Assembly: GCA_900320245.1 (NCBI GenBank)
Contig: ONRP01000030.1
Coordinates: 1 to 38,396 of the forward strand
DNA from: an uncultured Prevotellaceae bacterium
GTDB taxonomy: Bacteria > Bacteroidota > Bacteroidia > Bacteroidales > Muribaculaceae
Reading direction: 5' to 3'
DNA: 38,396 bases
Numbering within the stretch: position 1 is the stretch's first letter; every line of letters begins with the position of its first letter. Position numbers and translations under genes: made by a program. Below are positions 27,410-37,030 of the stretch, one piece after another. Below the pieces are notes generated by a model. That model had not been told where the DNA came from. It worked only from the letters and a program-made list of their open reading frames with translations, and searched no databases.

Positions 27410-27501
27410 TTTCTTTTAATTTCCCGTGCGATTGCACGGTTAAATATATTGTCGTTCCATCGCAGGGTCAACTGCTATATCGTTCCCTTATTTTATTTCG
27501 C

Positions 27502-27878
27502 TGACTGATATTTACTATGGACGCTATTCGTTCATAGCAGTTGCTTTAGTGTTGTACTCGCCCAAGGGGCGAGCCTCTCAGTAACCCGTGGTAATGCTGG
27601 CAATCGAGCGGAGCGAGAGAGTCAGCATCACCACGGGTTAGGCTGTACGCAAGACTGTCGCTGAAGGCGACCCCCTTGACGGTCGTGGGTATTGGGGTCG
27701 CCTCTGGCGACGACATGGCTGGATTACAGTTCCAGGGGTGCCTGCCACTTCACTCGCTTCGCTCGTTTCATTAGCAGGTACCCCCGGTTACTCAGATGAC
27801 ACCCTTCGGGTGTTTCGCCCGCATCAAAAAAATGTCCTTGCCGGCTACATTTTAAACGATGTTTACCGGACACCAATA
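27502..27878 (+). repeat. Structured 377-bp direct repeat, copy 1
   Basis: 93% identical without gaps to 30120-30496 (25 differences by hand count; the last 99 bp are identical). Visible hairpins: 27557-27573 (7-bp stem), A 27583-27639 (10-bp perfect outer stem plus 6 bp inner), 27657-27671, 27697-27711, D 27735-27784 (11 bp), 27799-27813 and 27841-27869. The loops of A and D are complementary (27605-27617 with 27753-27765). The ends are related: GATATTTAC...GGAC at 27507 and GATGTTTACCGGACACCAAT at 27858. It contains no TAnnTTTG promoter and no convincing protein. It ends within the signal-peptide region of the next gene. Confidence 0.85.
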
Positions 27879-27963
27879 GGCCCTCCTGCTGCCCGCACTC
27901 GCCACGGCCCACGACTTCGAGGTCGATGGCATCTATTACAAGATCAACGGCAATGAGGCCACA
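27859..27963 (+). pseudogene. Broken 5' end of the first LRR_5 gene
   Basis: In the frame of the downstream gene, ATG at 27859 reads MFTGHQ and then an amber stop (27877-27879). After it the frame continues ALLLPALATAHDFEVDG, clearly the tail of a signal peptide and the start of the mature protein. So the repeat's right end replaced the promoter, start codon and first part of the signal peptide. TAG is used as a normal stop by other genes here, so recoding is unlikely. Confidence 0.7.
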
Positions 27964-29946
27964 GTGACTTTCAGAGGTTACAATTGTAGTTCATTCTACA
28001 ATGAGTATTCAGGCGCTGTCGTCATCCCTGCCGCCGTCACCTATAATGGAACCACCTACCCGGTGACTTCTATTGATGCGTTGGCGTTCATTTACTGCGA
28101 AGGCCTGACCAGTATCGTCATCCCCAACTCGGTAACTGATATCGGTCAAGAGGCGTTCGCGTACTGCCCTGGGCTGGCCAGCATCGTGGTAAAAAGTGGC
28201 AATCCAAGATATGATTCGCGCAACAACTGCAAAGCGGTTATCGAGACCACCGATAATGAGTTGATTGCTGGCTGCAAGAACACGATTATCCCCAATTCGG
28301 TGACTAAGGTCGGTAACTTTGCGTTCAAAGGCTGCGAGAGCCTGACCAGCATCGTCATCCCCAACTCGGTAACTGAGATCGGTGATAGGGCGTTCTATAG
28401 TTGCGATGGGCTGACCAGCGTCAACATAGGTAACTCGGTGACTGAGATCGGTGACTGGGCGTTCGAGGGCTGCACAGGGCTGACCAGCATCGTGGTAGGC
28501 AGTGGCAATCCAAGGTTTGATTCGCGCAACAACTGCAATGCAATTATCGAGACTGCCTCTAACACGTTAATTTATGGCTGCAAGAACTCGACTATCCCCA
28601 ACTCGGTAACTGCAATCGGTAACTTTGCGTTCGACTGTTGCTATGGACTGACCAGCGTCAACATAGGTAACTCGGTAACTTCTATCGGTGACAAGGCGTT
28701 CGAGAATTGCAGTGGTCTGACCAGCATCGTCATCCCCAACTCGGTAGTTGTGATTGGCGACGAGGCGTTCAAGAGTTGCTGGGGAGTGACCAGCCTCAAC
28801 ATAGGCAACTCGGTAACTTATATCGGTGACGGGGCGTTCGAGGGCTGCGCTGGACTGACCAGTATCGTCATCCCCAACTCGGTAACTGATATCGGTGACA
28901 AGGCGTTCTCTGACTGCAATCGGCTGACCAGCATCGACATCCCTAACTCGGTAACGTCCATCGGTGAAAGGGCGTTCTATAACTGCCCTGGGCTGACCAG
29001 CATCGTGGTAGAAAGTGGCAACCCGATATATGATTCACGCAACAACTGCAATGCAATTATCGAGACCGCCTCTAATACTTTATTGTTGGGCTGCAGGAAT
29101 ACGATTATCCCCAACACGGTCACTGAGATCGGTGACTATGCGTTTGTTTACTGCGCTGATTTGACCAGCATCGTCATCCCCAATTCGGTGACCAAGATCG
29201 GTGACGGGGCGTTCTCTTGTTGCAAGGGGCTGACCAGCGTCGACATTCCTGACTCGGTGACTAAGATCGGTATCGGGGCTTTTGAGGCCTGCACTAGACT
29301 GGCCAGCATCGTCATCCCTAACTCGGTGACTTCTATCGGTCTCTCGGCGTTCTATAATACAGCATGGTACAATAACCAGCCAAACGGACTGGTCTATGCC
29401 GGCATGGTCGCTTATGAGTATAAGGGAACGATGCCAAGCGGAACGAATGTAACTTTAAAAGAAGGAACATTAGGCATCGCCGGCTGTGCGTTCGAGAGTT
29501 GCACTGGTCTGACCAGCATCGTCATCCCCAACTCGGTGATTGATATCGGTGACGGGGCATTCTATTGGTGCACAGGACTGACAGATGTGTATTGCTACAT
29601 TGCTGACCCCTCGAGAGTATCGTACGGGAATGAACAATTCAATTTGAATGATGGTGATTACTCGGGCCGTACGCTTCATGTGCTGAAGGGGAAGGCTGAT
29701 GCCTACGGGGCTGATGAGAACTGGTATCCCTATTTCGGGCGGATTGTGGAAGACCTGAATCCTGTGATTCCGTCTGGCGATGTGAACGGCGACCTTGAGG
29801 TCAACATTGCTGATGTGAATGCCGCCATCGACATCATCTTGAATGGTGGCGAGAATCCCAGCGGTGACGTGAACGATGACGGCGAAATCAACATCGCCGA
29901 CATCAACGCTGTCATCGACATCATCCTGGGCGGCACCCAGAATTAG
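27964..29946 (+). CDS. BspA-type LRR_5 surface protein with dockerin-like tail, lacking a normal start
   Basis: 660 residues from a GTG at 27964. That codon lies inside mature protein (ATVTFRGYN), so it is only the first formal start; homologous coding begins at 27880. It has about 17 LRR_5 repeats of 23 residues (pattern LTSIVIPNSVTEIGDxAFxxC), interrupted three times by a longer unit, SGNPRFDSRNNCNAIIET. The C-terminal part is LHVLKGKADAYGADENWYPY, then two dockerin-like Ca-binding repeats (GDVNGDLEVNIADVNAAID and GDVNDDGEINIADINAVID). BspA-type proteins are adhesins that bind host or bacterial surfaces. No promoter, start codon or complete signal peptide is present, so it is a pseudogene or a silent cassette. 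A terminator follows. Confidence 0.8.
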   Translation: MTFRGYNCSSFYNEYSGAVVIPAAVTYNGTTYPVTSIDALAFIYCEGLTSIVIPNSVTDIGQEAFAYCPGLASIVVKSGNPRYDSRNNCKAVIETTDNELIAGCKNTIIPNSVTKVGNFAFKGCESLTSIVIPNSVTEIGDRAFYSCDGLTSVNIGNSVTEIGDWAFEGCTGLTSIVVGSGNPRFDSRNNCNAIIETASNTLIYGCKNSTIPNSVTAIGNFAFDCCYGLTSVNIGNSVTSIGDKAFENCSGLTSIVIPNSVVVIGDEAFKSCWGVTSLNIGNSVTYIGDGAFEGCAGLTSIVIPNSVTDIGDKAFSDCNRLTSIDIPNSVTSIGERAFYNCPGLTSIVVESGNPIYDSRNNCNAIIETASNTLLLGCRNTIIPNTVTEIGDYAFVYCADLTSIVIPNSVTKIGDGAFSCCKGLTSVDIPDSVTKIGIGAFEACTRLASIVIPNSVTSIGLSAFYNTAWYNNQPNGLVYAGMVAYEYKGTMPSGTNVTLKEGTLGIAGCAFESCTGLTSIVIPNSVIDIGDGAFYWCTGLTDVYCYIADPSRVSYGNEQFNLNDGDYSGRTLHVLKGKADAYGADENWYPYFGRIVEDLNPVIPSGDVNGDLEVNIADVNAAIDIILNGGENPSGDVNDDGEINIADINAVIDIILGGTQN

Positions 29947-29993
29947 ATATAACTGGAGCCTGCTGCAAAAGGTACCACATCCAATAACACGAA

Positions 29994-30028
29994 GCGACCG
30001 ACTGCCCACGCAGCCGGCCGCTTTTTTT
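29994..30028 (+). terminator. Terminator of the first LRR_5 gene
   Basis: GCGACCGACTGC (29994-30005) with GCAGCCGGCCGC (30010-30021), two A-C mismatches, 4-nt loop, then seven T. Confidence 0.7.
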
Positions 30029-30052
30029 GTGTGGATGTATGGAAAATGGGCA
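30010..30052 (+). repeat. Copy 2 of the 43-44 bp repeat
   Basis: Partner of 27309-27352, with a few substitutions and one indel. Here it contains the 3' arm and T-tract of a terminator. Together with the 377-bp repeats it marks a tandem unit of about 2.6-2.7 kb. Confidence 0.75.
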
Positions 30053-30119
30053 TGCCTGTGATGATAATTGAGAAATCTTTCATTGTCTGGGGAAAATCTA
30101 TTCAATTATTCTATTTGGT

Positions 30120-30496
30120 TGACTGATATTTACTATGGACGCCAATCGTTCATAGGGCTTGTTTTAGGGCCGCTCTCGCCCAAGGGGCGAGCCTCTCAGT
30201 AACCCATGGTAATGCTGGCAATCGAGCGGAGCGAGAGAGTCAGCATTACCACGGGTTCGGCCGTACGCACGAATGTCGCTGGAGGCGACTCCCTTGACGG
30301 TCATGGACATTGGGGTCGCCTCTGGCGACGACATGGCTGGATTACAGTTCCGGGGGTGCCTGCCTCTTCACTCGCTTCGCTCGTTTCATTAGCAGGAACC
30401 CCCGGTTACTCAGATGACACCCTTCGGGTGTTTCGCCCGCATCAAAAAAATGTCCTTGCCGGCTACATTTTAAACGATGTTTACCGGACACCAATA
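30120..30496 (+). repeat. Structured 377-bp direct repeat, copy 2
   Basis: Offset +2618 from copy 1. It keeps all hairpins. Stem A has one pair opened (AACCCATGGT against ACCACGGGTT) and one gained (AATGCTG with CAGCATT). The 13-nt loop-loop complementarity is unchanged (30223-30235 with 30371-30383). End-related direct repeats lie at 30125 and 30476. It ends CACCAATA directly before AACAACTATTC, which looks like an Met-Lys-Gln-Leu-Phe start that lost its ATG. Confidence 0.85.
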
Positions 30497-30519
30497 AACA
30501 ACTATTCCGCTTTTCTGTA

Positions 30520-31791
30520 TTGCTGCTGGCACTCCTGTTGCCTTTAACGGCTACGGCCGCCGACTTCATGGTCGATGACATCTGTTACAACATCCACGGC
30601 AACGAGGCCGCCGTGGCTTCCCGCCGTGTTCCTGGTTTTTTATTTATCGGGTATAAAGGCGATGTCGTCATCCCGGCCACCGTTACCTACAATGAAATCA
30701 CCTACCCGGTAACTTCTATCGAAGACATTGCGTTCTATGGTTGCCATGATCTGACCAGCATCGTCGTCCCCAACTCGGTAACTGAGATCGGTCAAGAGGC
30801 GTTCGGGAACTGCCCTGGGCTGACCAGCATCGTGGTAGAAAGTGGCAACCCAAGGTTTGATTCGCGCAACAACTGCAATGCAATTATCGAGACCACCGAT
30901 AATGAGTTGATTGCTGGCTGCAAGAACACTATTATCCCCAACTCGGTAACTAAGATCGGTAACTTTGCGTTCGGTGCCTGCGTCAGTCTGACCAGTATCG
31001 TCATCCCCAACTCGGTGACTGAGATCGGTCACTATGCCTTCTATAGTTGCGACAGTCTGACCAGCATCGACATTCCCAACTCAGTAATTGAGATTGGTTA
31101 CGGGGTGTTCGAGAGTTGCCTTGGTCTGACCAGCATCGTGGTAGAAAGAGGCAATCCAAGATATGATTCGCGCAACAATTGCAATGCAATTATCGAGACC
31201 GCCTATAACACATTACTTTATGGCTGCAAGAACACGACTATTCCCAACTCAGTAACTACTATCGATGACTATGCGTTCTATGGTTGCGACAGTCTGACCA
31301 GCATCGTCATCCCCAACTCGGTAACTGAGATCGGTTACGGGGCGTTCTATGATTGCATAGATCTGACCAGCATCGTCATCCCCAACTCGGTAACTTCTAT
31401 CGGTGACAACGCGTTCTGTAATTGCTGGCGGCTGACGGATGTGTATTGCTACATTGCTGACCTCACGAATGTATCGAGCGGGAATCGTACATTCTATTCT
31501 AATAGTTATGGTTACTCAGGTCGCACGCTTCATGTGCTGCAGGGGATGGCTGATGCCTATCGGGCTGACGAGAACTGGTATTCCTATTTCGGACAGATTG
31601 TTGAAGATATATTCATGGGTGACGTTAACGGCGACCTTGAAGTGAACATTGCTGATGTGAACGTCGCTATCGACATGATTCTGGGCGGAAACAGTAGCGC
31701 TCCTGCTGCCGATGTGAACGATGACGGAGAAATCAACATTGCCGACATCAACGCCATCATCGACATCATCCTGGGCGGCACCTGGAATTAG
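30520..31791 (+). CDS. BspA-type LRR_5 surface protein with dockerin-like tail, start codon lost
   Basis: 423 residues from a TTG at 30520, the best formal start, giving a short hydrophobic leader ending PLTATAADF. In frame upstream the sequence reads NKQLFRFSVLLLALLLP, an evident signal peptide whose ATG is missing; the frame is closed at 30415-30417 without any ATG. About eight LRR_5 repeats, two SGNPRFDSRNNC-type units, and a tail with two dockerin-like repeats (GDVNGDLEVNIADVNVAID and DVNDDGEINIADINAIID). Several stretches are nearly identical in DNA to the preceding gene, which allows gene conversion. Probable surface adhesin, but expression is doubtful because neither promoter nor ribosome start is recognisable. 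Confidence 0.78.
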   Translation: MLLALLLPLTATAADFMVDDICYNIHGNEAAVASRRVPGFLFIGYKGDVVIPATVTYNEITYPVTSIEDIAFYGCHDLTSIVVPNSVTEIGQEAFGNCPGLTSIVVESGNPRFDSRNNCNAIIETTDNELIAGCKNTIIPNSVTKIGNFAFGACVSLTSIVIPNSVTEIGHYAFYSCDSLTSIDIPNSVIEIGYGVFESCLGLTSIVVERGNPRYDSRNNCNAIIETAYNTLLYGCKNTTIPNSVTTIDDYAFYGCDSLTSIVIPNSVTEIGYGAFYDCIDLTSIVIPNSVTSIGDNAFCNCWRLTDVYCYIADLTNVSSGNRTFYSNSYGYSGRTLHVLQGMADAYRADENWYSYFGQIVEDIFMGDVNGDLEVNIADVNVAIDMILGGNSSAPAADVNDDGEINIADINAIIDIILGGTWN

Positions 31792-32113: not shown

Positions 32114-34597
32114 ATGAAGAAACTATTACTTTTTTCATTGGCTGCACTGATGGCTGCACTCGCAGTCCACGCCGATGTGACCATCAACAGCACGAACTTC
32201 CCTGACGCGACCTTCCGCAACTATCTGTTGAGCGAGTATCCCAGCGGCACCATCACCACGGCGCAACTCAATGCGCGCGACACGTTGAATCTGCCTTACA
32301 AGGGCATTTCCAACATGACGGGTGTGCAGTATTTTACCCAATTAAAAAGATTGGATCTCTACTCCAATAATCTCACCTCGATTGACGTGAGCGCCAACAC
32401 CAAGCTGATTTACCTCAATTTGGGTTACAACAAGTTGACGTCTATCAACGTGACCAGTAACACGGTGTTGCAAGAGCTGTATCTCCAGAATAACCAACTC
32501 ACCACAGTCAGTGTGAACAATCACAGCAGTCTGAGAACGTTGTGGGTTCGGGGCAACACCACCTTGACGGGCTTCTACTGCTGGCGTGATGCGCTGACCA
32601 GTGTTGACGTGACAGGTTGCACAGCACTGCTGTATCTCAAGATTTACAACAACTATAACTTGACGAGTATCTATGGCTTGGAAGACTGCACCAATCTGAC
32701 CTGGCTGGATGTCGAGGACACGTCGTTCAGCGACTTGAGTGCTGTTACGGGCATGACCAAACTGGAGACGTTGCTGGCGGGCAATACCCAAATCAGCGCC
32801 CTCAATACCAGCCATAACGGCAGCCTGAAAAACCTGCAAGTCGCTGGCGACACGCGATTGACCGAACTCATCTGCTACAGTGAGGACTTGACAACACTCA
32901 AAGTGACGGGTTGCACGGCATTGAGCACGCTCAAGTGCTACTACAATGATAATCTCGAGACTATCACTGGCCTTGCCAGTTGTAAAGCGCTGGCCTATGT
33001 GGACTGTGAGGACTGTGCCATCACCGAGTTGCCCGGCGTGAACGACATGACGAACCTGGGGACGCTGTGGTGCCGCAATAACCAGTTGACGGGCACCCTT
33101 GAAGTGAGCGACAAACCTCAACTGAAATATCTCAGGGTTAGTGGCAACAAGGGGCTGCAAGAGCTCAGATGCCCCCGCAACGCCTTGATATCGCTTGATG
33201 TGACAGGCTGCACCGCGTTGAACTTATTACATTGTGAAGTAAACAGCAATCTTTCGTCAATCCTGGGACTGACTGGTTGCACAGCGTTAAATTGGTTGGG
33301 CTGCGATTATTGCGCACTCACTTCACTTGACGTGACATTCTGCCCTGGCCTCGAAAGTCTGTATTGCTACAATAACCAGTTGACCTCGCTCAACGTGACG
33401 GGTCTGACTAACCTTTTGAACTTGAACTGCATGAACAACCCTGACCTTGGCAGCATTACCGGCCTGAGTGACTGCTCGGCCGTGACTTATTTTGGGTGCT
33501 CTGACTGCGGCCTCAACAGCTTGGATGTGAGCCACATGAACAATCTGGGAGAACTGTGGTGCAGCAACAATCTGTTCACCACACTCTCGGTAATTAATAA
33601 ACCCCAGTTGACGGCATTGGTTGCCAACGATAATCCATTCCTTGAAGAATTAGAATGCTACTCTTGCGCACTGACCCGTTTGGATGTTTCTGATTGCCCT
33701 GTACTGGATTATATCGATTGCGAGGAAAACCAATTGACTGAACTGGACGTCACCACTTGCCCGGCGCTCATATACTTCCTCTGCTCATACAATCAACTGA
33801 CCGAACTCGACATCAGCCGCAACTCTGAACTCCTTTACCTCTGGTGCCGAGACAACCAGTTGACAAGTGTGGACCTGAGCTCTTGTCCCGACGCTTTCCT
33901 TTCTCTTGACTGCCGTAACAACCAGGTTTCGGGCACTATCGATGTCTCGAGGTTTGCCAACTTGATCCATCTAATATGTAACAATAATCAGATATCTCAA
34001 GTGGTACTCGGTAACCATGACCAACTCACTTACCTTTGGGTCGCTGCCAATCAGTTAACGAGTCTTGATGCCAGTGGCTGCACTGCACTGCAATCATTAC
34101 GTGCTCAAACCAATCAACTGACGAGCCTGCCACTGGGAAATTGCCCTGATTTGAAAGAATTGCCCATTTTCTATAATCAAATCAATGCCGCCAAGATGGG
34201 TGAGATTGTCGACGCGCTACCCATGCGCAGCGCCGATAATCGAGGAATACTTTATGCCATTATCGATTATAATCCCGAAGATGATACTGTAGAGGGAAAT
34301 GTCATTACTGCAGCCCAGGTTAGCCAGGCCAATGCCAAGAATTGGGATGTCTACCATTGGTCTTGGGCGGAAGGCGAAGGCTGGGAGCCTTATGCCGGCA
34401 GTTCGTTCCAGCGTGGCGACGTAAACGGCGACGGCCATGTCGACATCAACGATGTGACCGCCCTGATCAACTATGTGCTCACTGGTAATGCCACAGGTGT
34501 CAACATGACCAATGCCAACTGCGACCTGCAGGGCGGCATCGACATCAACGATGTGACCGTCCTGATCAACTACGTGTTGAAAGGCTCCTGGAATTAA
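32114..34597 (+). CDS. Secreted LRR protein with dockerin-like tail
   Basis: 827 residues. Signal peptide MKKLLLFSLAALMAALAVHA. After about 75 residues, 25 or more leucine-rich repeats of 20-23 residues follow, in two flavours: NNQLTSLDVSxCPxLxxLxC and NPDLGSITGLSDCSAVTYFGC. Cys recurs at fixed positions of the repeat. The C-terminus (about 768-827) is a dockerin-like pair, GDVNGDGHVDINDVTALIN and CDLQGGIDINDVTVLIN, ending LKGSWN. The architecture resembles internalin-like and BspA-like adhesins, made for protein or glycan binding outside the cell. Start, signal peptide, promoter and terminator are all intact, in contrast to the two preceding genes. The ligand is unknown. Confidence 0.88.
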   Translation: MKKLLLFSLAALMAALAVHADVTINSTNFPDATFRNYLLSEYPSGTITTAQLNARDTLNLPYKGISNMTGVQYFTQLKRLDLYSNNLTSIDVSANTKLIYLNLGYNKLTSINVTSNTVLQELYLQNNQLTTVSVNNHSSLRTLWVRGNTTLTGFYCWRDALTSVDVTGCTALLYLKIYNNYNLTSIYGLEDCTNLTWLDVEDTSFSDLSAVTGMTKLETLLAGNTQISALNTSHNGSLKNLQVAGDTRLTELICYSEDLTTLKVTGCTALSTLKCYYNDNLETITGLASCKALAYVDCEDCAITELPGVNDMTNLGTLWCRNNQLTGTLEVSDKPQLKYLRVSGNKGLQELRCPRNALISLDVTGCTALNLLHCEVNSNLSSILGLTGCTALNWLGCDYCALTSLDVTFCPGLESLYCYNNQLTSLNVTGLTNLLNLNCMNNPDLGSITGLSDCSAVTYFGCSDCGLNSLDVSHMNNLGELWCSNNLFTTLSVINKPQLTALVANDNPFLEELECYSCALTRLDVSDCPVLDYIDCEENQLTELDVTTCPALIYFLCSYNQLTELDISRNSELLYLWCRDNQLTSVDLSSCPDAFLSLDCRNNQVSGTIDVSRFANLIHLICNNNQISQVVLGNHDQLTYLWVAANQLTSLDASGCTALQSLRAQTNQLTSLPLGNCPDLKELPIFYNQINAAKMGEIVDALPMRSADNRGILYAIIDYNPEDDTVEGNVITAAQVSQANAKNWDVYHWSWAEGEGWEPYAGSSFQRGDVNGDGHVDINDVTALINYVLTGNATGVNMTNANCDLQGGIDINDVTVLINYVLKGSWN

Positions 34598-34619
34598 ATG
34601 ACCGACATCGCCAAGATAT

Positions 34620-34657
34620 TTCCCTCATGCCCTCTCCTGGGGCGTGAGGGAATTTTT
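34620..34657 (+). terminator. Terminator of the LRR gene
   Basis: 13-bp stem with one G-U pair (34620-34632 with 34640-34652), 7-nt loop, then TTTTT. Confidence 0.9.
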
Positions 34658-34672
34658 ATCCTATTTTATCGG

Positions 34673-34700
34673 CCATTAATGGAAAATATTACTAAATTTG
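34673..34700 (+). promoter_or_regulatory. Palindrome plus -7 box before the DUF285 gene
   Basis: CCATTAATGG (34673-34682) is a perfect 10-bp palindrome 10 bp upstream of TAAATTTG (34693-34700). The palindrome overlaps the expected -33/spacer region and the usual TTTG is missing, so it could be an operator. The arrangement is repeated at 37106-37133. Confidence 0.5.
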
Positions 34701-34732
34701 TGGCAAATATTAACTTTTAAAGCCAAATTACT

Positions 34733-37030
34733 ATGAAAAAGAAGAATTTACTCCTGCGTCTGGTCGTCCTGCTGGCGGCCATGATGTGTGCCTTCGGCGC
34801 CGCTGCTGCCGAGGCCTATGCCAACTACACGCCGTCGAACACGACGTTGACGTTCTACTACGACAACTACCGCAGCAGCCGCTCGGGAACGACCTACGAC
34901 CTGAACACGCTCAACAACAGTCCCGGCTGGTACACTGACGGCACCAATGCCAATGTGACCAAGGTGGTCTTTAACTCCTCGTTTGCCGATGCCCGCCCGA
35001 CGACCACCTATTTTTGGTTTTACAGAATGGAGAACCTTCAGTCCATCACAGGCCTGAGTTACCTGAACACCAGTGAGGTGACTAATATGTCTTATATGTT
35101 TGCGAGCTGTACAAATCTGACGAGCCTTGACTTGAGCAGTTTCAACACGTCCAAGGTGACTAAAGCAAACGGTATATTCCGTGATTGCAGTAGCCTGGCA
35201 AGTCTTGACTTGAGCAGTTTCAATACGTCCAAGCTTACTAATATGAATTACATATTTAGTAACTGCACCAGTCTAAGGACCGTCTATGCGGGTTCGGGTT
35301 GGACAACAGCAGCCGTGACAAGTTCCTACTACATGTTCCAAGATTGCACCAACCTGGTGGGCGGCAAGGGCACGACCTATGATGCCAATCATATCGATGC
35401 CACCTACGCCCACATCGACGGCGGCACGAGCAACCCGGGCTATTTCACCGAATTCAAAGAGGCCTATGCCTGCTATACACCGTCGAACACGACGCTGACG
35501 TTCTACTACGACAACCAGCGCGCTTCACGCACGGGCACGACCTACGACTTGAACACGGACGACAACGACACCGGCTGGGATACCGACGACACTAATGCCA
35601 GTGTGACCAAGGTGGTCTTTGACCCCTCGTTCGCTGGTGCCCGCCCGACGTCCACCTGCGGTTGGTTCTATTATATGCCTAACCTTGAATCCATCACGGG
35701 CATGGAGTACCTGAACACCAGCGAGGTGACCAATATGAATTGGATGTTCATGGAGTGTTATAAATTGACAAGCCTTGATTTGAGCCACTTCAACACGTCC
35801 AAGGTGATAAGTATGACTCAAATGTTCACATATTGCATTGGCTTAACGAGCCTTGATTTGAGCCACTTCAACACGTCCAAGGTAACCCAAATGAATAAAA
35901 TGTTCTATAACAGCACTAATTTGCGGACCATTTATGTGGGCAATGGCTGGAGCACGGCTGCCGTGACGTACTCCGGTGATATGTTCAAATACTGCACCAG
36001 CCTGGTGGGCGGCATGGGCACGACCTATGATGAGAACCACATTGATGGTGCGTACGCCCACATCGACGGCGGCACGAGCAACCCGGGCTACTTCACCGAG
36101 AAGGGGCCAGAAGCCTATGCCTGCTACACGCCGTCGAACACGACGCTCACGTTCTACTACGACAAACTGCGCAGCAGCCGCACGGGCACGACCTACGACC
36201 TGAACGAGGGCGACAACTATACTGAATGGGAAACCGACGGCATCAATGGCAGTGTGACCAAGGTGGTCTTTGACCCGTCGTTTGCGGGCGCCCGACCGAC
36301 AACCACCAGCGGTTGGTTCTATGATATGCGGAACCTTGAATCCATCACGGGCATGAGTTACCTGAACACCAGTGAGGTCACCAATATGTCTTGGATGTTC
36401 TACAACTGCTCTAAACTAACAAGCCTTGATGTGAGCCAGTTCAACACGTCCAAGGTGACCGATATGAGTTTCATGTTCTACAACTGCAGTACACTAACGA
36501 GCCTTGATGCGAGCCACTTCAACACGTCCAAGGTCACCATTATGTACGCGATGTTCTTGAACTGTAGCCGCTTGACAAGCCTTGATGTGAGCCATTTCAA
36601 CACGGCCAAGGTGACCGATATGAGATACATGTTCGCTGGCGGCCTCAATCTGCAGACCATCTATGTAGGCAATGACTGGAGCACTGCGGCTGTGACGGAG
36701 TCCAGTGATATGTTTATGAACTGCTTCAACCTGGTGGGCGGTAAGGGCACGACCTACGATGCCAACCATGTGGACAAGACCTACGCCCACATCGACGGCG
36801 GCCCCAGCAACCCGGGCTACTTCACCGCGAAGAATGCCGGCCTGCGTGGCGACGTGAACAATGATCAGCGTGTCGACATCAACGATGTGACCGCCCTGAT
36901 TAACTATGTGCTCACTGGTAATGCCACAGGTGTCAACATGACCAATGCTAACTGCGACCTGCAGGGCAATGTCGACATCAACGATGTGACCGCCCTGATT
37001 AACTTCGTGTTGAAAGGCACCTGGAATTAA
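34733..37030 (+). CDS. BspA-family DUF285 surface protein with three modules and dockerin-like tail
   Basis: 765 residues. A signal peptide (residues 1 to about 26, ending FGAAAA) is followed by three modules of about 216 residues, starting near bases 34811, 35459 and 36111. Each module has an entry segment (EAYACYTPSNTTLTFYYD, then TKVVFDPSFAGARPT), several DUF285 repeats of 24-25 residues (SLDLSxFNTSKVTxMxxMFxxC) and an exit segment (VGGKGTTYDANH, YAHIDGGTSNPGYFT). The dockerin-like tail is GDVNNDQRVDINDVTALIN and DLQGNVDINDVTALIN, ending LKGTWN. DUF285 repeats occur in surface lipoproteins of mycoplasmas and adhesins of Bacteroidales. The modules are very similar in DNA, so copy number can change by recombination. 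Cell-surface binding is likely; the ligand is unknown. Confidence 0.9.
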   Translation: MKKKNLLLRLVVLLAAMMCAFGAAAAEAYANYTPSNTTLTFYYDNYRSSRSGTTYDLNTLNNSPGWYTDGTNANVTKVVFNSSFADARPTTTYFWFYRMENLQSITGLSYLNTSEVTNMSYMFASCTNLTSLDLSSFNTSKVTKANGIFRDCSSLASLDLSSFNTSKLTNMNYIFSNCTSLRTVYAGSGWTTAAVTSSYYMFQDCTNLVGGKGTTYDANHIDATYAHIDGGTSNPGYFTEFKEAYACYTPSNTTLTFYYDNQRASRTGTTYDLNTDDNDTGWDTDDTNASVTKVVFDPSFAGARPTSTCGWFYYMPNLESITGMEYLNTSEVTNMNWMFMECYKLTSLDLSHFNTSKVISMTQMFTYCIGLTSLDLSHFNTSKVTQMNKMFYNSTNLRTIYVGNGWSTAAVTYSGDMFKYCTSLVGGMGTTYDENHIDGAYAHIDGGTSNPGYFTEKGPEAYACYTPSNTTLTFYYDKLRSSRTGTTYDLNEGDNYTEWETDGINGSVTKVVFDPSFAGARPTTTSGWFYDMRNLESITGMSYLNTSEVTNMSWMFYNCSKLTSLDVSQFNTSKVTDMSFMFYNCSTLTSLDASHFNTSKVTIMYAMFLNCSRLTSLDVSHFNTAKVTDMRYMFAGGLNLQTIYVGNDWSTAAVTESSDMFMNCFNLVGGKGTTYDANHVDKTYAHIDGGPSNPGYFTAKNAGLRGDVNNDQRVDINDVTALINYVLTGNATGVNMTNANCDLQGNVDINDVTALINFVLKGTWN

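What the first reader, a model, noticed from the sequence alone, without database searches (positions are those of the whole stretch)
27502..30496. A 377-bp structured direct repeat precedes two surface-protein genes
Two 377-bp copies (27502-27878, 30120-30496) share 352 of 377 bases without gaps, more conserved than needed for ordinary intergenic DNA. Each folds on paper into about seven hairpins. Long-range alternatives also exist, such as GGCGACCCC at 27667 pairing with GGGGTCGCC at 27694 instead of the two local hairpins. There is no promoter octamer and no convincing protein. It could be a non-autonomous mobile element, a structured RNA leader, or a recombination cassette.
Basis: partly seen in the sequence, partly recalled or inferred. 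Interest (0 to 1): 0.8.

Follow-up and report, generated by a model that had tools for sequence, protein, structure and literature searches.

The report
Hairpin repeat inside a transposon shell
The repeat is a gene-less mobile DNA element: a set of hairpins like those that flank a single-strand-DNA transposase gene in related gut bacteria, here enclosed between the ends of a second kind of transposon, and copied along with a surface-protein gene.

Summary
The two 377-bp copies are real (352/377) and fold far better than shuffles (z -5.6 and -6.1). They are not just a segmental duplication: the core, whole or half, lies at ten more places in the same genome, in 21 of 101 genomes of the genus including this one, and at 36 places in one relative. 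The core is a quasi-palindrome: small hairpin, GTAA foot, long hairpin, small hairpin, then the mirror image. In relatives the same arms bracket a 149-aa HuH/Y1 (IS200-type) transposase gene, so the window element is an ORF-less, REPIN-like derivative. That enzyme shows the signature of TnpA-Y1 subclass 1.2, listed without REPs in the one survey I found. A second layer was unexpected: copies amplified in a relative, and window copy 2 (left end degenerate), end in inverted repeats ATTRGTGTCCRGKRAAA. Short elements with such ends carry several hairpin families and often have 9-bp target duplications; DUF4372/DDE insertion sequences of the genus have similar ends. Best reading: REPIN-like cargo in a MITE shell, locally duplicated with a BspA-like gene. 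No enzyme activity was tested; neither cognate gene was found in this genome.

The parts
27557..27573 (+). copy 1, outer small hairpin 1 (CTCGCCC..GGGCGAG)
27581..27584 (+). copy 1, GTAA foot at the base of long hairpin 1 (position of the guide tetranucleotide in REPs)
27585..27637 (+). copy 1, long hairpin 1 with apical GAGCGnAGCGAG
27657..27671 (+). copy 1, inner small hairpin (GTCGC..GCGAC); in relatives the transposase gene lies just beyond it
27697..27711 (+). copy 1, second inner small hairpin (mirror); only 25 nt separate it from the first, where relatives hold the gene
27733..27787 (-). copy 1, long hairpin 2 (mirror arm)
27787..27791 (-). copy 1, GTTAC = mirrored foot of long hairpin 2
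27799..27813 (-). copy 1, outer small hairpin 2 (ACACCCTTCGGGTGT)
27862..27878 (-). copy 1, right terminal inverted repeat of the shell (TTTACCGGACACCAATA); no left one found in copy 1
27880..29946 (+). BspA-type LRR gene 1: open frame without ATG; begins inside the signal-peptide region directly at the element's right end (first start codon GTG 27964)
30079..30098 (+). copy 2, left end of the shell, degenerate; found by alignment to G109 left ends (score 69-76 for three of four, against 38 for the best of 200 shuffles), not by the pattern scans
30175..30191 (+). copy 2, outer small hairpin 1
30199..30202 (+). copy 2, GTAA foot
30203..30255 (+). copy 2, long hairpin 1
30275..30289 (+). copy 2, inner small hairpin
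30315..30329 (+). copy 2, second inner small hairpin
30350..30405 (-). copy 2, long hairpin 2
30405..30409 (-). copy 2, mirrored foot GTTAC
30417..30431 (-). copy 2, outer small hairpin 2
30480..30496 (-). copy 2, right terminal inverted repeat of the shell
30496..31791 (+). BspA-type LRR gene 2 with a dockerin-type C-terminus: frame open but no ATG; relative to G020 the 88 bp that hold promoter motif and start codon are missing right of the element

Best explanation
The repeat is a non-autonomous nested mobile element. Inner layer (shown by comparison): two inverted REP-like arms, each small hairpin - GTAA foot - long hairpin - small hairpin, of the same layout and similar sequence as the arms that frame Y1/HuH transposase genes of TnpA-Y1 subclass-1.2 type in the same genus; the gene between the inner hairpins is absent. 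Outer layer (shown for relatives; in the window only copy 2 has both ends, the left one degenerate): terminal inverted repeats ATTRGTGTCC.., similar to those of DUF4372 + DDE_Tnp_1 (IS4-type) insertion sequences of the genus, with about 9-bp target duplications at many relatives' elements. Mechanism (inferred): the Y1 enzyme cuts and joins the hairpins as single strands and seeded ORF-less copies; the IS4-type enzyme moved shell and cargo together as a MITE. In the window one such element lies upstream of a BspA-like gene, and element plus gene were duplicated locally. In both copies the DNA right of the element (promoter motif and start codon) is missing, consistent with deletions that begin at the element's right end.
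For: Dispersed copies: ten other places in G000, seven with both arms; 21 of 101 genus genomes; 47 matches at 36 places in G109. Arms frame a Y1 gene in G017 and others. Flanks of 66 Y1 loci fold better than distal DNA of the same loci (z<-2: left 50/66, right 47/66, distal 16/119), and the left flank matches the inverted right flank in 54/66. GTA[AG] foot on a stem of 7 or more: left 21/66, right 20/66; shuffles 1.3 and 1.2; distal 0/53. All 11 G000 cores tested match Y1-locus flanks. Covariation in arms (selected arms). Element absent in G016 at the L005 site. Terminal-repeat pattern in 35 of 101 genus genomes, reversed pattern in none. Target duplication at 7/9 or better in 11 of 21 pairs; in the offset scan 10 of 21 at one offset, 0-1 at the other ten. 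DUF4372/DDE loci: both ends within 3 mismatches in 10 of 16 scanned. Interiors of 12 of 16 terminal-repeat elements match Y1-locus flanks, 0/16 shuffled, 0/32 neighbouring segments.
Against: No Y1 gene with this arm type and no IS4-type transposase at E<=1e-20 was found in G000, an assembly about 90% complete. Of the 12 G000 copies only the two window copies show an inward shell end within 2 mismatches; copy 1 has no left end and copy 2's left end was missed by the pattern scans. No target duplication is seen at the window copies. Pattern hits did not enclose a Y1 or IS4-type gene in the element loci checked, so the two layers are linked only by cargo similarity; 2 of the 12 matching cargoes (L257, L273) had been fetched with the window repeat itself. 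One search also gave two longer pairs at 2+2 mismatches (898 and 1749 bp) of unclear meaning. Two-sided GTA[AG] feet occur in only 13/66 Y1 loci, and the wrong-strand control gave 1 and 6. The G016 site differs in more than the element and its ends carry a short repeat, so deletion there is not excluded.
Confidence: 0.8

Rival explanations
1. REPIN/BIME-like elements moved by the Y1 enzyme alone; the GTGTCC ends are a favoured insertion target or chance neighbours.
For: Ten of 12 G000 copies show no inward shell end within 2 mismatches; Di Nocera et al. report REP dimers inside palindromes whose empty forms were not found in two species (PMC3733652 section 7).
Against: Direct repeats lie just outside the GTGTCC ends in 11 of 21 pairs, DUF4372/DDE ISs of the genus have similar ends, and three G109 copies of 384-414 bp carry both ends (L257, L258, L260).
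Confidence: 0.12
2. Structured RNA leader or cis-regulatory RNA of surface-protein genes.
For: Both copies precede BspA-type genes; strong fold; covariation.
Against: Other copies have varied neighbours, distances and strands; no Rfam match; the same arms frame transposase genes on both sides; both genes lack start codons; the core also matches its own reverse strand.
Confidence: 0.03
3. Local segmental duplication only.
For: Upstream strip, element and BspA gene are all duplicated; G020 has one copy that is a mosaic of both.
Against: Explains the pair, not the dispersed core copies in G000 and in 20 other genomes of the genus.
Confidence: 0.03
4. Silent-cassette or phase-variation system in which the repeat is the crossover site that joins start-less BspA cassettes to an expressed start.
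For: Both genes are start-less with long open frames; the repeat has recombined (G020 mosaic).
Against: In G020 the repeat lies 88 bp before the shared coding region, not inside it. Other G000 copies sit on other contigs with varied neighbours, though these were not compared with BspA genes one by one, and no expressed partner was searched for.
Confidence: 0.05

Closest known systems
REPIN / BIME and REPtron (TnpA_REP, RAYT) systems
   Same: Inverted pair of foot-plus-hairpin units, multi-copy, intergenic; the same units flank an HuH/Y1 transposase gene in relatives.
   Different: Foot is mostly GTAA, not GT[AG]G; each arm has three hairpins, not one; enzyme is of subclass 1.2 type; about a dozen copies here and 36 places in G109; cognate enzyme not found in this genome.
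TnpA-Y1 subclass 1.2 (Quentin et al. 2018, PMC6006769; abstract, passages and sections 12, 18, 38 read)
   Same: About 148 aa, HuH motif, Y---Q--HH, Bacteroidetes.
   Different: The paper's table says no REPs, and section 18 generally no typical IS200 end structures; here the genes are flanked by structured inverted arms with dispersed ORF-less copies.
TIRtrons/TIRYT (Di Nocera et al. 2013, PMC3733652; passages and sections 7, 16 read)
   Same: Tyrosine transposase genes flanked by long inverted repeats, some of which also occur dispersed.
   Different: Those TIRs are mostly described as unrelated to REPs; the present arms have a REP-like foot and three hairpins each.
MITEs of IS4-type (DUF4372 + DDE_Tnp_1) insertion sequences
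   Same: Terminal inverted repeats, about 9-bp target duplications in relatives, no transposase gene, under 450 bp, full IS in the genus.
   Different: The interior is not a deleted IS but arrays like the flanks of Y1 genes, of several families.
REP dimers nested in palindromes (A. variabilis GTAG-15, H. neapolitanus CGTC-1; PMC3733652 section 7)
   Same: REP pair inside a longer palindrome.
   Different: That section names no owner for the outer palindrome; here it resembles the ends of DUF4372/DDE insertion sequences.

Membership tests
TnpA-Y1 subclass 1.2 (the enzyme in relatives) | HuH written DH[IV]H | tested here: met
   both His invariant in 15 of 15; the Asp in 13 of 15, Asn in L049 and L050; the subclass's own HMM was not available
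TnpA-Y1 subclass 1.2 (the enzyme in relatives) | Y---Q--HH | tested here: met
   15 of 15
TnpA-Y1 subclass 1.2 (the enzyme in relatives) | No REP-like flanks, no typical IS200 end structures (as published) | tested here: not met
   structured inverted arms in most of 66 loci; this is a published negative trait
RAYT (NCBIfam REP_Tyr_transpos) | Score above the family cut-off (80 bits) | tested here: not met
   19.5-31.3 bits in 4 proteins; IS200 model 54.7-68.9 against cut-off 55, L049 just below it
REPIN/REPtron | Two foot-plus-hairpin units in inverted orientation | tested here: met
REPIN/REPtron | 5' GT[AG]G tetranucleotide | tested here: not met
   GTAA in 42 of 45 arms of A1, GTAG in 3; arms had been picked by GTA[AG]C
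REPIN/REPtron | Dispersed intergenic copies | tested here: met
   11 of 12 G000 copies overlap no ORF of 130 aa or more
REPIN/REPtron | Cognate transposase gene flanked by the same units in the genome | tested here: inconclusive
   present in relatives; not found in G000, about 90% complete
REPIN/REPtron | Single-strand cleavage by the enzyme | not testable with these tools
   needs a biochemical assay
MITE of IS4-type IS | Terminal inverted repeats shared with a full IS | tested here: met
   both ends within 3 mismatches at 10 of 16 loci scanned, 9 of 15 genus loci plus viral contig L333; window right ends within 1 mismatch, copy 2 left end degenerate
MITE of IS4-type IS | Target-site duplication | tested here: inconclusive
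   11 of 21 elements in relatives at 7/9 or better; none seen at the window copies
MITE of IS4-type IS | IS present in the same genome | tested here: not met
   0 matches in G000 at E<=1e-20
Structured RNA family (Rfam) | Match to a known family | tested here: not met
   at gathering thresholds only the tRNA

The most novel reading that the evidence does not exclude
In this gut Bacteroidales genus the hairpin arrays of several different single-strand (HuH/Y1) systems, including those of the supposedly REP-less subclass 1.2, are systematically carried as cargo inside MITEs of one IS4-type DDE transposon group, so that two different transposition chemistries share one element.
Probability: 0.45. 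Interest if true: 0.78.

Novelty: new variant of a known kind. Interest (0 to 1): 0.6.

Why it matters
It gives a concrete candidate substrate to a transposase subclass published as having no REP-like partners, so what these enzymes act on becomes directly testable. It also suggests that REP pairs, usually thought to spread through their own enzyme, can spread as passengers of a DDE transposon, which would change how REPIN copy numbers and spread are read.

Tried and rejected
Rfam search of the window: only the tRNA. Plasmid and phage records, distant blastn of copy 2: no match. Empty-site search with the L003 region: only the neighbouring gene is shared, no conclusion; with the L005 region 1 of 8 genomes searched (G016) has both flanks. 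The strict two-sided GTA[AG] test finds only 13 of 66 loci; the foot-free tests were then used. The scarcity of G-U pairs (10 of 605 paired cells) was considered as a sign of DNA hairpins and dropped: the arms in A1 (45 of the 73 found, chosen by me by eye) were picked by Watson-Crick stems, so helices 1 and 2 lean towards pairing; only helix 3 (92.2% paired, 5 G-U of 166 paired cells) was not selected for. 'Pairs with a change on both sides' (10 of 14) is reached by 29 of 500 shuffles, so that measure alone is weak; paired cells and both-side cells are reached by 0 of 500. Deletions at the right end of both copies are inferred from the G020 comparison, not shown. The terminal-repeat hits (62 against 1 control in 299 loci) include overlapping loci and loci fetched with that pattern; one search is the fairer count. 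The permuted control (0.3 expected) was run at offset 0, not at the best offset. The other three of four viral contigs with the pattern (L330-L332) showed no partner end suited to an element. Paper searches for prior reports; one search was swamped by unrelated papers.
Full report
OBSERVATION. The two copies are as stated: 352 of 377 bases identical without gaps, each folding better than all 100 shuffles. The window is contig C63 of a 3.02-Mb, 73-contig genome (G000, 90.4% complete). Same-genus relatives include a Muribaculaceae MAG: G017 and record JAFYYU01 share a 77,191-base contig.

NOT ONLY TWO COPIES. A blast of the repeat against its own genome gives 28 matches at E<=1. Leaving out reverse-strand overlaps and hits of under 25 nt, they fall at the window pair and ten other places: seven with both arms (C54 twice, C62, C44:552, C30, C52, C55; the last two score weakly but show the layout) and three with one arm (C44:3637, C19, C50). 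Of 41 genomes searched, 7 including G000 match at E<=1e-4; of 101 in the genus, 21 including G000 match at E<=1e-8. Relative G109 has 47 matches at E<=1e-5, 40 of 54 candidates scored, which merge to 36 places. Of 12 G000 copies examined 11 overlap no ORF of 130 aa or more.

ANATOMY. The core reads: small hairpin, linker, GTAA foot, long hairpin with an apical GAGCGnAGCGAG, small hairpin GTCGC..GCGAC, 25 nt, then the mirror image. It therefore also matches its own reverse strand.

THE ARMS FRAME A TRANSPOSASE GENE IN RELATIVES. In G017 the two halves lie about 590 bp apart with a 149-aa Y1/HuH gene between the inner hairpins. The same layout is seen by eye at other loci. In L148, L149 and L151 the DNA on both sides of the gene matches the window core at 72-84%. 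The protein is Pfam Y1_Tnp, closest in NCBIfam to the IS200 model, with weak sequence matches to solved transposases of that kind. In 15 aligned proteins the HuH histidines and Y---Q--HH are invariant. That is the published signature of TnpA-Y1 subclass 1.2 (PMC6006769 section 18), which the paper's table lists with REP 'no' (passage).

STATISTICS ON THE FLANKS. Of 70 loci from public genomes 66 have both flanks long enough. DNA-parameter folding z below -2: left 50/66, right 47/66, distal segments of the same loci 16/119; the left flank matches the inverted right flank above the 99th percentile of shuffles in 54/66. GTA[AG] foot on a stem of at least 7: left 21/66, right 20/66, both 13/66; shuffles 1.3, 1.2, 0.1; wrong-strand control 1, 6, 0; distal 0/53. 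All 11 G000 cores tested match flanks of Y1 loci. On 45 selected arms 96.3% of cells pair against 74.9% shuffled; sliding the partners gives 34-50% (selection bias in Tried and rejected).

MOBILITY. At the site of G000 copy L005, G016 (1 of 8 genomes searched) has both flanks (93% and 88%) but lacks about 421 bp that contain the core. The site is not otherwise clean: just to the left G016 has about 217 bp where G000 has 93, and the ends of the missing stretch carry a GGCCTCGCC-like short repeat. Deletion in G016 remains possible.

SECOND LAYER. Copies in G109 share more than the core: several end in inverted repeats of the type ATTRGTGTCCRGKRAAA, three with both ends (L257, L258, L260). The right one ends both window repeats (27862-27878, 30480-30496). 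The left one was found only in copy 2, at about 30079-30098, degenerate, by alignment to G109 left ends (score 69-76 for three, 51 for the shorter L267 stretch; best of 200 shuffles against L260 38; copy 1 against L260 30); the pattern scans miss it. The strict pattern occurs in 35 of 101 genus genomes, the reversed control in none; G000 has no strict match. In the loci fetched most pairs are 82-414 bp apart; one search also lists pairs of 898 and 1749 bp, each end with 2 mismatches. No Y1 or IS4-type protein is encoded between those two longer pairs or anywhere in loci L286-L329. I examined 16 elements: interiors of 12 match flanks of Y1 loci, of four hairpin families; 2 of the 12 (L257, L273) had been fetched with the window repeat, so 10 of 14 are independent of it; 0 of 16 shuffled and 0 of 32 neighbouring segments match. 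Of the other four, L312, L326 and L317 show GTAG-headed hairpins by eye and L309 is unassigned. Just outside the ends, 11 of 21 distinct pairs (searched at 60-450 bp only) have 9-bp direct repeats matching at 7 or more positions; in the offset scan 10 of 21 match at one offset and 0-1 at the ten others, 0.3 expected on permuting partners at offset 0.

OWNER OF THE ENDS. A scan of viral contigs gave four stretches; one (L333) is a 1.3-kb insertion sequence with these ends, a 385-aa DDE_Tnp_1 + DUF4372 protein and a 10-bp direct repeat by eye. Relatives of that protein occur in 21 of 101 genus genomes, not in G000; G109 is not among those matched. I scanned L333 and 15 of the 23 genus loci: both ends within 3 mismatches in 10 of 16, one end in 3, none in 3; 7 of the 10 show a 9- or 10-bp direct repeat by eye. 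The genus ISs differ from the element pattern mainly at the two bases after GTGTCC. 'IS4-type' is my naming from the domains, recalled.

THE WINDOW PAIR. Upstream strip, element and BspA gene are duplicated. In G020 one element lies 88 bp before the shared gene region, with a TAnnTTTG motif and an ATG in between; in the window both are missing, and gene 1 starts deeper in the signal-peptide region. G020's element is copy-1-like on the left and copy-2-like on the right, so homologous exchange between copies is likely.

MECHANISM, SHOWN AND INFERRED. Shown: layout, copy distribution, Y1 gene framed by the arms in relatives, similar ends on DUF4372/DDE ISs, target duplications in relatives. Inferred: that the Y1 enzyme acts on these arms; that the IS4-type enzyme moved the shell; that deletions started at the right end. 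Not found: either enzyme gene of matching type in G000.

LITERATURE. Seen: outline with abstract, passages and sections 12, 18, 38 of PMC6006769; passages and sections 7, 16 of PMC3733652; passages of PMC8266576; listings of searches. In these I saw no report of REP-like arms at subclass 1.2 genes or of REP pairs inside IS4-type MITEs; the library holds open-licence papers only.

Noticed in passing
window 27880-29946 and 30496-31791: Both BspA-type LRR genes lack an ATG and a TAnnTTTG promoter motif although their frames are long and open; G020 has a homologue of gene 2 with both.
   Followed up: partly
L166 (Oligosphaera), L204 (Chthoniobacter), L200, L173: Hairpin arms in mirror order also flank genes of this transposase type in more distant records, with other feet and stems.
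   Followed up: partly
window about 27418-27480; L009, L017, L023: Another recurrent short palindrome (AATTTCCCG..CGG, CAACTGCTATATCGTTC) lies beside several element copies and where copy 1's left shell end would be.
   Followed up: no
G109:C53 880-1362 (L271, L279-L281): Left arms repeated in tandem with a period of about 110 bp, like a REP cluster.
   Followed up: no
L312, L326, L317: GTGTCC-ended elements that carry GTAG-headed hairpins, i.e. canonical REP type, rather than GTAA arms.
   Followed up: partly
window 32114-37030: Further LRR and DUF285 genes with dockerin-type C-termini and about 648-bp internal periodicity follow the BspA pair.
   Followed up: no
L049, L050 (G000 C17, C73): G000's own two Y1 genes of this type have different arm families; arms of similar look occur as cargo of GTGTCC-ended elements in relatives (L286, L328, L315).
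   Followed up: partly
window 30206-30547: A 113-aa ORF runs through copy 2 and on past its right end; it has no Pfam match and only its last part is open in copy 1.
   Followed up: partly
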